Shown piece by piece: positions 31,705-35,523 of a stretch of DNA of 43,854 nucleotides. The position numbers were made by a program, and so were the translations under genes. A model generated the notes under the pieces. It made no database searches, was not told the DNA's origin, and saw only the letters and a program-made list of their open reading frames with translations. Position 1 is the stretch's first letter. Each line of letters opens with the position of its first letter. Origin of the DNA: Thermoleophilaceae bacterium (lineage in GTDB: Bacteria > Actinomycetota > Thermoleophilia > Solirubrobacterales > Thermoleophilaceae); the NCBI GenBank assembly GCA_016929195.1, contig JAFGJG010000036.1, positions 1 to 43,854 on the forward strand, given 5' to 3'.

Positions 31705-32676
31705 CTACTGGCAGCGGTTTGCGCAAGGAGCGATTGCTCCTGCACATAACCCATCGACACCCAGGCCCGGAAGCATGACCGGGAGCCGCGCGGCCGCCTC
31801 AAGGACCTCCGGTGTCCCGTCGTCCAGCACCAGCGCGCCACCGTACGGCAGCCAGGACGCCGCGCGCTCCGGCCCGCTCAGCAGCGCGGCCTTCGCCCTG
31901 ACCTCCGCCTCGAGCGCCGTCGGCGCGATCGCCGTCGCCTGCACGACGCCCGTGAACGCCGGGCGTCCGGTCGCCGGGTCGAGCAGGTGGTGGGCCGGCC
32001 GCCCGTCGCGCCCCTCCCAGCTGCGCCGACCGATGCCGCTCGTGGCCACTCCGCCTTCGGCCACCTCGAAGCGGAGGAGCACGGTCCCGTCGAACGGGCT
32101 CTCGACTTCGACGGCACGCGCGGCACCGCCCACCCGCAGGTCGCCCCCGCAGACGACCGCGAATCCGGGTCGTCCCCGGAGTCGCTCGGCGAGCACGTCG
32201 GCGAACAGCCCCTTCGCGAGACCGCCCGAATCGAGCATCAGGCCGGGGGGCCGGCGGACCCAGTCCGCGCCGGCGGTCAGCTCCCGCCACCGCCCGAGCG
32301 GCGACGGGCCCGCGGGGACTCGCGCTGGGGCATGCGCAAGCGCATCGGCCAGCGGACGGGACGGCGGCGCATCCGGCACGTAGCCCGCGGCCTCGATCTC
32401 CGAGAGCAGCGTCCCGTCGACCAGACCGCCTGTCAGACCGCCGGCCCAGCCGACCGCCGCCGCGAGCCGCGCCAGCATTGGGCTGACCGGCACCACGGTG
32501 CGCGTGTCAGCGTTCAGCCTCGAGAGCTCGCTCGCTGCCAGGAACCGGCTGAACCGTGCGTGCCAGGCCAGCAGCGTGGCACGCGCGGCCCCGGTCGCGG
32601 CCGCCGCTCCCGGACCCGCGGCGCGGATCGTGCAGCGCCCGCCGAAGCACTCGAAGTCGACGGCAGCCTCGGTCAC
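31705..32676 (-). CDS. apbE: FAD:protein FMN transferase (ApbE)
   Basis: 323-aa enzyme that attaches FMN covalently to Ser/Thr of exported redox proteins. Signatures are SRFLAASELSRLNA, LDSGGLAKGLFADVLAERL, VVCGGDLRVGG and the Mg/FAD region ATSGIGRRSWE...HHLLDPATGRPA. GTG 32676 overlaps the stop of the preceding small gene (GTGA). It is the last gene of a four-gene coupled operon with a ferric-reductase-like membrane protein, which fits flavinylation-dependent electron transfer across the membrane. No lipobox is seen; a classical signal peptide is not evident either, so its location is uncertain. Confidence 0.9.
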   Translation of the reverse strand: MTEAAVDFECFGGRCTIRAAGPGAAAATGAARATLLAWHARFSRFLAASELSRLNADTRTVVPVSPMLARLAAAVGWAGGLTGGLVDGTLLSEIEAAGYVPDAPPSRPLADALAHAPARVPAGPSPLGRWRELTAGADWVRRPPGLMLDSGGLAKGLFADVLAERLRGRPGFAVVCGGDLRVGGAARAVEVESPFDGTVLLRFEVAEGGVATSGIGRRSWEGRDGRPAHHLLDPATGRPAFTGVVQATAIAPTALEAEVRAKAALLSGPERAASWLPYGGALVLDDGTPEVLEAAARLPVMLPGLGVDGLCAGAIAPCANRCQ

Positions 32677-32924
32677 GACTGCCCCGTGGACACCGACGCC
32701 GGCTGGTAGCCGCCGCCGGAGTCGTCCGACTCAGCCGAGTCGTCCGAGGCGGCCGAGGTGGTTCCGGAGTCGCTCGCCGCCGTCTGTGCGGCGCTCGCCC
32801 CGAGTGCGGGATCGTGGCCCGTGGCCATCTGCACGTAGATCCCCGCGAACAGCGCGAGGAACGCCGCCACCGCCAGCGCCGCCACGGTCTGCCGGATGCG
32901 CCGCGCGCGCTCGCGCGGGCTCAT
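32673..32924 (-). CDS. Small single-pass membrane protein with Ser/Asp-rich tail
   Basis: 83 aa: a basic N-terminus (SPRERARRIRQ), one membrane helix (TVAALAVAAFLALFAGIYVQM) and an outside tail rich in Ser, Ala, Asp and Gly ending VSTGQS. ATG 32924 overlaps the stop of the ferric-reductase-like gene, and its own stop overlaps apbE. Position between the two suggests it is a partner or the substrate of ApbE; the tail contains near-matches (DSGTTSAAS, STGQS) but no exact copy of the known flavinylation motif. No family is recognised. Confidence 0.75.
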   Translation of the reverse strand: MSPRERARRIRQTVAALAVAAFLALFAGIYVQMATGHDPALGASAAQTAASDSGTTSAASDDSAESDDSGGGYQPASVSTGQS

Positions 32925-33469
32925 GCCGACACCTGCCGACGCGCGGCCGGAGCCGGCCGCCGGCGCGTCATCCGCACCAAGAGCAGCGCCAGCGCCGGGG
33001 CGGCCGGGATGGCCACCGCCGCGAGGAACCAGGCCTGGCCCGCATCGGTGCCCCCGCCGAGCGAGTGAGCGACGGCGCCGAGCCACGCCAGAGCCGTGAA
33101 GCGGTGGAGCATCCGCCAGCGCGCCACGCCGATCCGCCCGCGCGCGTAGTAGCTGAGGCCGAGCGCGAGCAGCGCCCACGCGCTGAGGATCCCCAGGGTC
33201 GTCCAGAGCCGCTCGTACGAGCTGACGAAGGGGATCGTCAGGTCCGCGACGCTCGGGTGCAGGAAGCCGTCGCCCAGCAGCGTCACCGCGTGGAGTGCGA
33301 TCGCGGCGATGGTCGCGAGCGACAGCGCCTCGTGCGCCGACTTCAACCCGCGCACGCGCGGCGGCACGCGCAGGCTCTGAGCGAGGCCGACCGCCACCGC
33401 CGCGCTGGCGGTGAGCAGCGCCACGGCGCCGGCGGCCCGGCTGGCGATCCAGAACAGGTGCTCTTCCAT
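32921..33469 (-). CDS. Ferric-reductase-like transmembrane protein (heme b)
   Basis: 182-aa protein with five to six membrane helices of the FRD/MsrQ type. Histidines suited to bind two hemes lie in AHEALSLATIAAIALHAV and MLHRFTALAWLGAVAHSLGGG. It should carry electrons across the membrane; no NADPH or FAD domain is attached, so electrons must come from quinol or another partner. ATG 33469 begins 5 bp after the lipoprotein gene's stop. Part of the lipoprotein-FRD-small protein-apbE operon. Confidence 0.85.
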   Translation of the reverse strand: MEEHLFWIASRAAGAVALLTASAAVAVGLAQSLRVPPRVRGLKSAHEALSLATIAAIALHAVTLLGDGFLHPSVADLTIPFVSSYERLWTTLGILSAWALLALGLSYYARGRIGVARWRMLHRFTALAWLGAVAHSLGGGTDAGQAWFLAAVAIPAAPALALLLVRMTRRRPAPAARRQVSA

Positions 33470-33474
33470 GATGG

Positions 33475-33888
33475 CTAGGAGGCGGTCGTGCCGACGGTCC
33501 CGCCGGAGCCGCCGCCCTTCGGCGGCTCGCCGGCCGGCGGAGCGCCCTGCGGCATCAGCGACTCCATTGCCGTGCGCACCCCGGACTCGGAGACCCCGAG
33601 CTCGTCGGCCAGCGTGGAGAACGGGTCGTCGCTCGGCGACCGCCCCGGCTGCGGCCGGGTGGCCTCCATGGCCTGCTGCAGCTTCGCCTCCGAGACGCCG
33701 AGCTTCTCCGCCAGCGCACCGATGTCCGGGCCATCGCCCGGCCGGCCCGGTGGCGGGCCGGCCTGCGACCCGGACCGCTGGCCGGTCGCCGCCGCCGCGT
33801 CGCTCGATCCGTCGGTGCCGCAGCCGGTGACGGCGATCATGCCGGTCACCCCGAGCAGGGCGGCGGTATTCCTCAGCCTCGTATTCAC
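33475..33888 (-). CDS. Putative lipoprotein with two LGVSE helical repeats
   Basis: 137 aa with a lipoprotein signal (LLGVTGMIAVTGC, lipobox VTGC, cysteine about residue 23). The mature part has two copies of a 20-residue unit, IGALAEKLGVSEAKLQQAME and FSTLADELGVSESGVRTAME, in Pro/Gly/Ser-rich surroundings. The unit resembles short helix-turn-helix-like repeats but no function is recognised. GTG 33888 is preceded by GAGAGGAAG. It is the first gene of the FRD-apbE operon and is divergent from the carH-like gene with 142 bp between, which hold the CTGTACAG repeats. Confidence 0.75.
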   Translation of the reverse strand: MNTRLRNTAALLGVTGMIAVTGCGTDGSSDAAAATGQRSGSQAGPPPGRPGDGPDIGALAEKLGVSEAKLQQAMEATRPQPGRSPSDDPFSTLADELGVSESGVRTAMESLMPQGAPPAGEPPKGGGSGGTVGTTAS

Positions 33889-34004
33889 GATGCTTCCTCT
33901 CGTCGGGGGGGGTGTTCCTAAGACGGAGGCATCGTGGGGTGGCGAGCTAGGCGGCTCCTGAACGTTCCCTGAGGGGATCCTGGGCCTTTGGATCTCAGAC
34001 CGAT

Positions 34005-34024
34005 CTGTACAGGGGCTGTACAGT
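34005..34024. promoter_or_regulatory. carH-like gene promoter with twin CTGTACAG operator
   Basis: CTGTACAG-GGG-CTGTACAG occupies 34005-34023: two 8-bp palindromes with 11-bp periodicity. The -10 hexamer TACAGT (34019-34024) overlaps the second copy and ends 6 nt before ATG 34031, so the mRNA is leaderless and the operator covers the promoter. CarH of Thermus is known to bind tandem 11-bp repeats, so autorepression by the gene product is likely. Being symmetric, the site could also act on the divergent lipoprotein operon. Confidence 0.75.
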
Positions 34025-34030
34025 GAGCCG

Positions 34031-34882
34031 ATGGAGGCGCACCGGCTCCGAATCGGCGAACTGAGCCGCCGTACGGGGGTCTCCAGGGAGCTGCTGCGCG
34101 CGTGGGAGCGACGCTATGGAGTGCTACGGCCCGAGCGCACGGAGGGCGGGCTCCGGCTCTACTCGGCTGACGACGAGCGCCGGGTCCGGCGCATGCAGGT
34201 CGAGATGGCGGGCGGGATCTCCGCCGCCGAGGCCGCGCGGGTCGTGGCGGGGGGGGAGCCCGAGCCGAGGCCCGAGACCGGCAACGCGCTGGAGTCGGCG
34301 CGGGAGCGGCTCACCCGGACGCTCGAGGACATGGATGCGGAGGGAGCGCACGCCGCGCTGGACGCTGCGCTGACGGCGTTCATGGTGGACACCGTGCTCT
34401 CGGGCGTCGTCCTGCCCTTCCTTCGCGACCTGGGCTGGCGCTGGGAGCGCGGTGAGGTCTCGGTCGCACAGGAGCACTTCGCCAGCAACCTGATCCGGAG
34501 CCGCCTGCTGGGCCTGGCGAGGGGGTGGGAGCGGGGCGAGGGTCGGCGAGCGCTGCTGGCCTGCGCCTCCGGCGAGCAGCACGATCTGGCTCTCATCGCC
34601 TTCGGCCTCGCGCTGCGCAGCCGGGGCTGGCGCATCGCGTTTCTCGGGGCGGATACGCCCGCGGCGAGCGTGGCGGAGGCAGCGGAGCGGCTCGCGCCCG
34701 AGCTTGTCGTGATCACCGCCGTGTCTGCGAGCGCCTTTCGCTCCGAGGCGCGCGATCTGGAGGAGCTGGCTGCGAGGCACGAGGTCGCCATCGCGGGCCC
34801 CGGCGCCACGCGCGCGGTCGCCGGCAAGCTCGGGTGCGCGCTCATCGACGGCGACCCCGTGGCAGCCGCGGCCGAGCTCTGA
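34031..34882 (+). CDS. CarH-type B12-dependent photoreceptor, MerR-family repressor
   Basis: 283 aa. The N-terminal MerR winged helix reads RIGELSRRTGVSRELLRAWERRYGVL (7-32). The cobalamin-binding part has the four-helix cap motif Trp138-x9-Glu148-His149 and lower-ligand His184 in GEQHDLALIAFGLAL; the 35-residue distance between the two histidines equals that in Thermus CarH (142 to 177). Such proteins bind adenosylcobalamin as tetramers on DNA in the dark and fall apart in light, derepressing targets. ATG 34031 has TACAGT 6 nt upstream. Operator repeats in its own and the next promoter point to autoregulation and control of the fasciclin gene. Confidence 0.92.
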   Translation: MEAHRLRIGELSRRTGVSRELLRAWERRYGVLRPERTEGGLRLYSADDERRVRRMQVEMAGGISAAEAARVVAGGEPEPRPETGNALESARERLTRTLEDMDAEGAHAALDAALTAFMVDTVLSGVVLPFLRDLGWRWERGEVSVAQEHFASNLIRSRLLGLARGWERGEGRRALLACASGEQHDLALIAFGLALRSRGWRIAFLGADTPAASVAEAAERLAPELVVITAVSASAFRSEARDLEELAARHEVAIAGPGATRAVAGKLGCALIDGDPVAAAAEL

Positions 34883-34932
34883 CGATCCGGCGGCGGGGAT
34901 GGGTCTCGCCCCCTTCTTGGCGCGGACACACC

Positions 34933-34965
34933 ATTGACAAGAGCTGTACAAAAGCTGTACGTTCC
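34933..34965 (+). promoter_or_regulatory. Fasciclin gene promoter with three tandem 11-bp CarH-type repeats
   Basis: Three 11-bp units follow each other: ATTGACAAGAG, CTGTACAAAAG, CTGTACGTTCC. The first contains the -35 TTGACA (34934-34939) and the third the -10 TACGTT (34958-34963), spaced by 18 bp. Fourteen of 19 bases from 34944 equal the carH-promoter operator. Three repeats from -35 to -10 is the reported geometry for a CarH tetramer blocking a promoter. Confidence 0.8.
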
Positions 34966-35007
34966 TTCAGCGATGCATGTACACCGCTCACCATTGGAGG
35001 AGCACGG

Positions 35008-35523
35008 ATGAGAAAGCTCGCAGTTACCGCAGTGATCGCAATCGTCGCGCTCGCGACGGCGGCGGTGGCCTTCGGCGGCGGCGACGGCACGGGCCCGGCC
35101 GAGTCCGCAAAGGCCCGCAAGAACATCGTCAAGACGGCTGCCGGCGATCCCCGCTTCGACACGCTCGTGTCGCTCGTGAAGCAGGCGGGCCTGGCCAAGA
35201 CCCTGTCCGGGAAGGGACCGTTCACGGTCTTCGCCCCCACGGACAAGGCGTTCAAGAAGGTTCCCGCGGACACCCTCGAGGCGCTCGGGGCCGACAAGGA
35301 GGCCCTGAAGCGCGTGCTTCTGTACCACGGCGTGTCGGGCCGCTACCCCGCCGCGCGGGTGGTTAAGAAGGAATCGCTGAAGAGCCTCGCGGGGCCGCGT
35401 CTCACCGTTCGCGTGAAGGGCGACACGGTCAGGGTCGGCGGCGCCAAGGTCATCGATCCGGACATCAAGGCCTCCAACGGGATCGTCCACGCCATCAACG
35501 GCGTGCTCATCCCCCCGGAGTAA
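35008..35523 (+). CDS. Secreted fasciclin (FAS1) domain protein
   Basis: 171-aa exported protein: signal peptide (KLAVTAVIAIVALATAAVAFG) followed by one FAS1 domain with the H1/H2 blocks FTVFAPTDKAFKKVP (H1) and NGIVHAINGVLIPPE (H2) and YHGVSGRYPAARVV between. FAS1 proteins mediate adhesion, and some algal members (AstaP) bind carotenoids. GGAGGAG lies 6 nt before ATG 35008. The promoter carries CarH-type repeats, so expression is predicted to rise in light. A strong hairpin follows the gene at 35538-35567. Confidence 0.9.
   Translation: MRKLAVTAVIAIVALATAAVAFGGGDGTGPAESAKARKNIVKTAAGDPRFDTLVSLVKQAGLAKTLSGKGPFTVFAPTDKAFKKVPADTLEALGADKEALKRVLLYHGVSGRYPAARVVKKESLKSLAGPRLTVRVKGDTVRVGGAKVIDPDIKASNGIVHAINGVLIPPE

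What the first reader, a model, noticed from the sequence alone, without database searches (positions are those of the whole stretch)
33475..35523. Predicted light- and B12-controlled surface locus: CarH photoreceptor, fasciclin protein and divergent redox operon
The CarH-like protein keeps Trp-x9-Glu-His and a histidine exactly 35 residues later, as in Thermus CarH. Its own promoter has CTGTACAG-GGG-CTGTACAG over the -10, and the next gene's promoter has three 11-bp repeats from -35 (TTGACA) to -10 with 14 of 19 bases shared. CarH normally controls carotenoid genes; here the direct neighbour is a secreted FAS1 protein, and the symmetric operator also faces a lipoprotein-FRD-ApbE operon. Some FAS1 proteins bind carotenoids, so the target may be a photoprotective carrier. 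Control of the FAS1 gene is strongly supported; control of the redox operon is inference.
Basis: partly seen in the sequence, partly recalled or inferred. Interest (0 to 1): 0.75.

Follow-up and report, generated by a model that had tools for sequence, protein, structure and literature searches.

The report
CarH light switch controlling a fasciclin
A vitamin-B12 light sensor normally tied to carotenoid making sits beside, and carries its DNA-binding repeats in front of, a secreted adhesion-type (fasciclin) gene, and the same pair recurs in many bacteria of at least three phyla, including ones with no carotenoid genes.

Summary
carH (34031-34882) keeps the AdoCbl-sensing residues. Its promoter carries two 11-bp repeats, and the next gene, a secreted fasciclin (FAS1, 35008-35523), has a tandem 11-bp CarH-type operator from -35 to -10 (34934-34961), plus in-phase units at 34923 and 34978. 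The three-repeat pattern occurs once in the 3.46 Mb genome, at this promoter. Of 232 genomes of the order, 21 have both genes; in 14 they are neighbours, usually divergent. The pair also occurs in Gaiellales, Pseudomonadota and Gemmatimonadota. CarH-linked FAS1 genes carry the operator, commonly ending in the -35 TTGACA; none of 14 FAS1 genes from CarH-less genomes does. Best explanation: dark AdoCbl-CarH represses FAS1 and light releases it. The carotenoid-carrier idea fails for this genome: it has no phytoene/squalene synthase, nor have 6 of the 13 other order genomes with the pair. Control of the lipoprotein-ApbE operon is unsupported. A TtCarH-type bis-His light state cannot form (Glu139 replaces His132; no named actinobacterial CarH surveyed has this His). 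The light response is inferred, not shown. New target and module for a known photoreceptor family.

The parts
34031..34882 (+). carH: MerR DNA-binding domain + B12-binding_2 + B12-binding (Rossmann) domain; W138, E148, H149, H184; Glu139 at the TtCarH His132 position
34005..34024 (+). carH autoregulatory operator: two tandem 11-bp units (TGTACA at 34006 and 34017) over a putative leaderless -10 TACAGT (34019-34024)
34934..34961 (+). core CarH operator of the FAS1 promoter: three tandem 11-bp units TTGACA / TGTACA / TGTACG; unit 1 is the -35 element and unit 3 overlaps the -10 (TACGTT 34958-34963)
34923..34983 (+). extended in-phase array: CGGACA 34923 (3/4), core units, TCAGCG 34967 (2/4), TGTACA 34978 (4/4)
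35008..35523 (+). secreted single-domain fasciclin (FAS1) protein, 171 aa with an N-terminal signal-like segment; the only FAS1 gene in the genome
33475..33888 (-). divergent lipoprotein-like gene (VTGC lipobox); considered, control by CarH not supported
32921..33469 (-).
31705..32676 (-). ApbE FMN transferase; considered, not part of the module

Best explanation
carH and FAS1 form a light- and B12-gated module. Shown by sequence: a CarH-family regulator with the AdoCbl pocket residues; CarH-type 11-bp direct-repeat operators at its own promoter and over the -35/-10 of the FAS1 promoter; no other strict sites in the genome; the same gene pair and the same operator type in many relatives. Inferred: in the dark, AdoCbl-bound CarH oligomers sit on the repeats, block RNA polymerase at the FAS1 promoter and limit carH itself; light photolyses the Co-C bond, CarH lets go, and the secreted fasciclin is made, probably as a surface/adhesion protein that helps cells meet photo-oxidative stress by adhesion or aggregation, as proposed for fasciclins under photo-oxidative control in Azospirillum and Rhodobacter. 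The target is not tied to carotenoid synthesis.
For: CarH homology and residues. Operators in the genome. Pair in 14 of 21 order genomes that hold both genes (rough chance estimate 1e-33 if genomes were independent), and in Gaiellales, Pseudomonadota and Gemmatimonadota. Operator score upstream of FAS1 (max 12): linked mean 10.2, 11 of 18 at >=11; unlinked FAS1 in CarH+ genomes 7.7, 0 of 10; FAS1 in CarH-less genomes 7.3, 0 of 14. The operator reads toward FAS1, commonly with TTGACA as its last unit; upstream of carH 16 of 20 linked loci score >=11 against 0 of 20 inside the gene. FAS1 linkage needs about 10 changes on the CarH tree, at least 4 forced, so it was gained or lost repeatedly; the window FAS1 lies in the mainly CarH-linked part of the FAS1 tree. 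AdoCbl supply: the genome has a cobalamin adenosyltransferase. Operator consensus from PMC9304148. Fasciclins in photo-oxidative stress and adhesion.
Against: No expression or binding data. TtCarH His132, the upper ligand of the light state, is Glu here, and TtCarH H132A stays largely tetrameric in light (PMC10442372); but Bacillota CarHs in the survey also carry Glu there (15 of 15), and B. megaterium CarH changes form in light. Two other genomes of the same genus have no FAS1 match and have carH beside a PRC-barrel or an ECF sigma gene, so the pair is not fixed. NCBIfam TransRegCarH scores 143 bits against an equivalog cut-off of 400. The chance estimate treats related genomes as independent. 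The role of FAS1 is by analogy.
Confidence: 0.8

Rival explanations
1. FAS1 is a photoprotective carotenoid carrier (AstaP-like) induced by CarH.
For: Algal AstaP shows that a FAS1 domain can bind carotenoids (PMC10147662); AstaP structures match, but weakly (8c18, E 1e-10).
Against: No phytoene/squalene synthase and no over-threshold CrtI in this genome, nor PF00494 in 6 of the 13 other order genomes with the pair. The protein matches the bacterial fasciclin structure 1w7d far better (E 5e-27). A cyanobacterial FAS1 homologue did not bind carotenoid.
Confidence: 0.05
2. The regulator senses AdoCbl status (or redox) rather than light; it represses FAS1 when AdoCbl is plentiful, with little or no light response.
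For: His132 of the TtCarH bis-His light state is Glu here and is never His in the surveyed actinobacterial CarHs; TtCarH H132A stays mostly tetrameric in light.
Against: W, E, H and H for AdoCbl stacking and ligation are kept; Bacillota CarHs carry Glu in the survey, and B. megaterium CarH is light-responsive; some CarH neighbours in the clade are DNA photolyases.
Confidence: 0.13
3. CarH also controls the divergent lipoprotein-membrane protein-ApbE operon.
For: The carH operator is palindromic and lies in the shared intergenic region (sequence).
Against: No such operon at the other CarH loci searched; the repeats lie about 115 bp from that operon's start, not over a recognisable promoter; no -35 TTGACA on that strand.
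Confidence: 0.1
4. The repeats only autoregulate carH, and FAS1 is a neutral neighbour.
For: carH has its own operator at 34005-34024.
Against: FAS1 has a separate, longer operator containing its own -35, downstream of carH where it cannot serve the carH promoter; operators go with CarH-linked FAS1 genes and are absent from FAS1 in CarH-less genomes.
Confidence: 0.02

Closest known systems
CarH of Thermus thermophilus (TtCarH) and its 3-repeat operator
   Same: Domain order, Wx9EH, axial His 35 residues on, three tandem 11-bp TnnACA repeats with the -35 element in one of them
   Different: His132 is Glu139; the target is a fasciclin gene, not carotenoid genes; an extra in-phase repeat at 34978
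CarH of Bacillus megaterium (four-repeat operators over -35 or -10)
   Same: Longer tandem array over -35/-10; Bacillota CarHs in the survey carry Glu after the Trp
   Different: Target genes; the B. megaterium protein itself was not aligned here
Fdp (RSP_1409), fasciclin of Rhodobacter sphaeroides
   Same: Single-domain bacterial FAS1; adherence factor (PMC7561615), raised under photo-oxidative stress (PMC7074977). The bacterial fasciclin structure 1w7d is among the good matches; that it is Fdp is from memory
   Different: Regulated there by Prr and the photo-oxidative stress response, not by CarH
Fasciclin of Azospirillum brasilense under RpoE-ChrR (Dubey et al. 2021, cited in PMC10949492)
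   Same: Fasciclin linked to photo-oxidative stress and flocculation
   Different: Sigma-factor (RpoE-ChrR) control instead of a B12 photoreceptor
AstaP carotenoid-binding fasciclins
   Same: FAS1 fold
   Different: Weak sequence match; no carotenoid synthesis found in this genome

Membership tests
CarH B12-dependent photoreceptor/repressor | MerR DNA-binding domain followed by two-part cobalamin-binding domain | tested here: met
   Pfam MerR_1, B12-binding_2, B12-binding all over cut-off; near full-length match to TtCarH
CarH B12-dependent photoreceptor/repressor | Wx9EH motif and axial His | tested here: met
   W138, E148, H149, H184; alignment
CarH B12-dependent photoreceptor/repressor | His next to Trp (TtCarH His132), upper ligand in the light state; present in many, not all, CarH, so not strictly defining | tested here: not met
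   Glu139; no His in surveyed named actinobacterial CarHs; not universal in the family
CarH B12-dependent photoreceptor/repressor | Operator of tandem 11-bp nnnnTnnACAn repeats over promoter elements | tested here: met
   consensus from PMC9304148
CarH B12-dependent photoreceptor/repressor | AdoCbl-dependent DNA binding in the dark, released by light | not testable with these tools
   needs purified protein
CarH B12-dependent photoreceptor/repressor | NCBIfam equivalog cut-off for HTH-type repressor CarH (NF052513) | tested here: not met
   143 bits against 400; a strict equivalog model, so it counts against the exact name, not against the family
CarH B12-dependent photoreceptor/repressor | Controls carotenoid synthesis genes (usual target, not strictly defining) | tested here: not met
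   no PF00494 in genome; CrtI hits all below cut-off
Fasciclin (FAS1) secreted protein | FAS1 domain over nearly the whole mature protein | tested here: met
   PF02469 E 2.8e-38, profile 1-123/123
AstaP carotenoid-binding FAS1 | Carotenoid binding / carotenoid available in the cell | tested here: inconclusive
   no synthesis genes found; binding itself not testable here

The most novel reading that the evidence does not exclude
A widespread, carotenoid-independent CarH-fasciclin (often CarH / DUF378-FAS1) light module in at least three phyla, in which light switches on a secreted adhesion-type protein, and which in Actinomycetota is run by CarH proteins whose light state cannot use the bis-His cobalt ligation known from Thermus.
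Probability: 0.6. Interest if true: 0.7.

Novelty: new variant of a known kind. Interest (0 to 1): 0.6.

Why it matters
CarH is described in the papers read here as the switch for carotenoid genes. This locus and its relatives point to a second, independent output: light-gated secretion of a fasciclin, the same protein class that alphaproteobacteria place under photo-oxidative stress control. It would join two unrelated light-stress circuits on one effector, help explain why bacteria without carotenoid genes keep CarH, give bacterial fasciclins a testable physiological role, and raise the question of how CarHs without His132 signal light. No paper found in the held library joins CarH/LitR with a bacterial fasciclin, which does not exclude subscription papers.

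Tried and rejected
Carotenoid carrier: rejected for this genome. Redox-operon control: no conservation and no suitably placed promoter. Chance repeats: rejected by whole-genome pattern counts and by unlinked/CarH-less FAS1 controls. A fixed genus-level pair: rejected, since the two same-genus genomes have carH but no FAS1 match. DUF378, which lies between carH and FAS1 in several relatives, was not found in this genome. The generic sigma-70 scan gave nothing. Structure prediction was not run: a FAS1 model would match all FAS1 folds and not separate adhesin from carotenoid carrier. The AstaP pocket positions were not aligned residue by residue.

Full report
What is there. carH (34031-34882) encodes a MerR DNA-binding domain followed by the two-part cobalamin-binding domain. 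It aligns over its length with Thermus CarH and keeps W138-x9-E148-H149 and H184, 35 residues after H149. The next gene (35008-35523) encodes a 171-aa protein with an N-terminal signal-like segment and one fasciclin domain (E 2.8e-38); it is the only fasciclin found in the genome.

Operators. The published CarH operator is a tandem series of 11-bp repeats nnnnTnnACAn that overlaps the -35 or -10 (PMC9304148). The FAS1 promoter has TTGACA (34934, the -35), TGTACA (34945) and TGTACG (34956), and, in the same phase, a further TGTACA at 34978 and CGGACA at 34923; the -10 TACGTT lies 18 bp downstream of the -35, in unit 3. The carH promoter has two units (34006, 34017) over TACAGT, six bases before the ATG, so a leaderless carH transcript is likely (inference). 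In the 3.46 Mb assembly (97.6% complete) CTGTAC-N5-CTGTAC occurs without mismatch only at these two promoters, and the three-unit pattern occurs once, at FAS1. In this genome the recognisable strict sites are therefore carH itself and FAS1; weaker sites cannot be excluded.

Comparative test. In 232 genomes of the order, 48 have CarH and 59 have FAS1. Of the 21 with both, 14 have them as neighbours: G000, G016, G038, G060, G116, G119, G152, G154, G158, G160, G209, G220, G222, G223. All are divergent except the window, where FAS1 lies downstream in the same direction. The pair also occurs in a Gaiellaceae genome (L048), another Thermoleophilia genome (L055), a Steroidobacteraceae genome (L082), another gammaproteobacterium (L096) and a Gemmatimonadota genome (L099). 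The best three-unit score in the 400 nt upstream of FAS1 averages 10.2 of 12 for linked genes, 7.7 for unlinked FAS1 in CarH genomes and 7.3 in CarH-less genomes; none of the 24 controls reaches 11, while 11 of 18 linked ones do. Where 400 nt was too short, because a small gene lies between, the operator was found nearer carH. The usual design is repeat-repeat-TTGACA reading toward FAS1, the third repeat being the -35, with a weak TAnnnT -10 about 18 bp on. In several loci a DUF378 gene (Pfam E 4e-20) lies between operator and FAS1, with a second triplet over its start.

The window as a rearranged case. On a FAS1 tree the CarH-linked proteins cluster (4 changes against a shuffled mean of 13.8, none of 500 shuffles as low), and the window FAS1 lies among them (not a starred branch). 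The one unlinked FAS1 with a fair operator (L150, score 10, p 0.012) also lies there, as expected of a gene controlled in trans. So FAS1 has a different position relative to carH in the window lineage but has a CarH operator: the strongest single argument for regulation. On the CarH tree the FAS1 label needs about 10 changes, at least 4 forced by well-supported branches, so the pairing arose or was lost repeatedly.

Carotenoids. The genome has no PF00494 (phytoene/squalene synthase), and its CrtI-like hits are far below the family cut-off. Of the 14 order genomes with the pair, 7 lack PF00494 (G000, G038, G060, G116, G119, G152, G158) and only 4 have CrtI above the cut-off (G154, G209, G220, G222). 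The CarH-FAS1 link does not need carotenoids, so the carrier idea is unlikely here. The fasciclin is much closer to the bacterial fasciclin structure 1w7d (E 5e-27) than to AstaP (8c18, E 1e-10). In R. sphaeroides, Fdp is an adherence factor whose loss cuts adherent cells 100-fold (PMC7561615), and RSP_1409 is raised under photo-oxidative stress (PMC7074977). In A. brasilense a fasciclin under RpoE-ChrR is linked to photo-oxidative stress and flocculation (cited in PMC10949492). In M. kansasii two fasciclin genes are light-induced (PMC9861118). A light-gated adhesion or aggregation protein is the best reading, by analogy.

The photoreceptor. In TtCarH, His132 becomes the upper cobalt ligand in light, and H132A stays largely tetrameric (PMC10442372). 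The equivalent residue is Glu139 here. Among 67 CarHs at the surveyed loci only two, the gammaproteobacterial L082 and L096, have His there; most others have Glu, Ala or Gln. By phylum among named genomes: Actinomycetota 0 of 19 His, Bacillota 15 of 15 Glu, Myxococcota 6 of 8 His. The genome can make AdoCbl (adenosyltransferase). Light sensing is therefore likely but unproven; an AdoCbl-only switch is the main rival.

Other CarH neighbours in this clade are PRC-barrel/DUF2382 proteins, DUF378, ECF sigma factors, photolyases and SDR/SRPBCC sets, several with the same operator, so CarH output in Thermoleophilia looks broad and FAS1 is one recurrent part of it. The divergent lipoprotein-membrane protein-ApbE operon was not seen at the other CarH loci searched and is left out of the module.

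Verdict: observation confirmed; FAS1 control strongly supported; carotenoid-carrier and redox-operon claims not supported; a new target and module for the known CarH family.

Noticed in passing
L044:7326-8509 (G000:C170:47325-48508): A MarR regulator gene directly followed by a stand-alone B12-binding protein that keeps Wx9EH and a later GEQH histidine: a candidate second, split B12 photoregulator in the same genome.
   Followed up: partly
L028, L033, L035, L038, L167, L173, L178 next to carH: PRC-barrel + DUF2382 proteins are recurrent CarH neighbours in this order, some with CarH-like repeats between the genes.
   Followed up: partly
L027:6780-7031; also L032, L036, L047, L049, L055, L126, L132, L134: A DUF378 small membrane protein lies divergent from carH, often with FAS1 behind it; a second repeat triplet overlaps its start region in several loci.
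   Followed up: partly
L029, L137, L140, L175 next to carH: ECF sigma factor genes beside carH, suggesting that CarH may feed a sigma cascade in some relatives.
   Followed up: no
L051:2811-3623: In a Nitriliruptoraceae genome the gene divergent from carH encodes a secreted DUF4397 protein with a 12/12 operator between: another surface-type CarH target candidate.
   Followed up: no
window 31705-33888: Lipoprotein, membrane protein without Pfam match, small protein and ApbE form a compact minus-strand operon; possible flavin-based extracytoplasmic electron transfer set.
   Followed up: no
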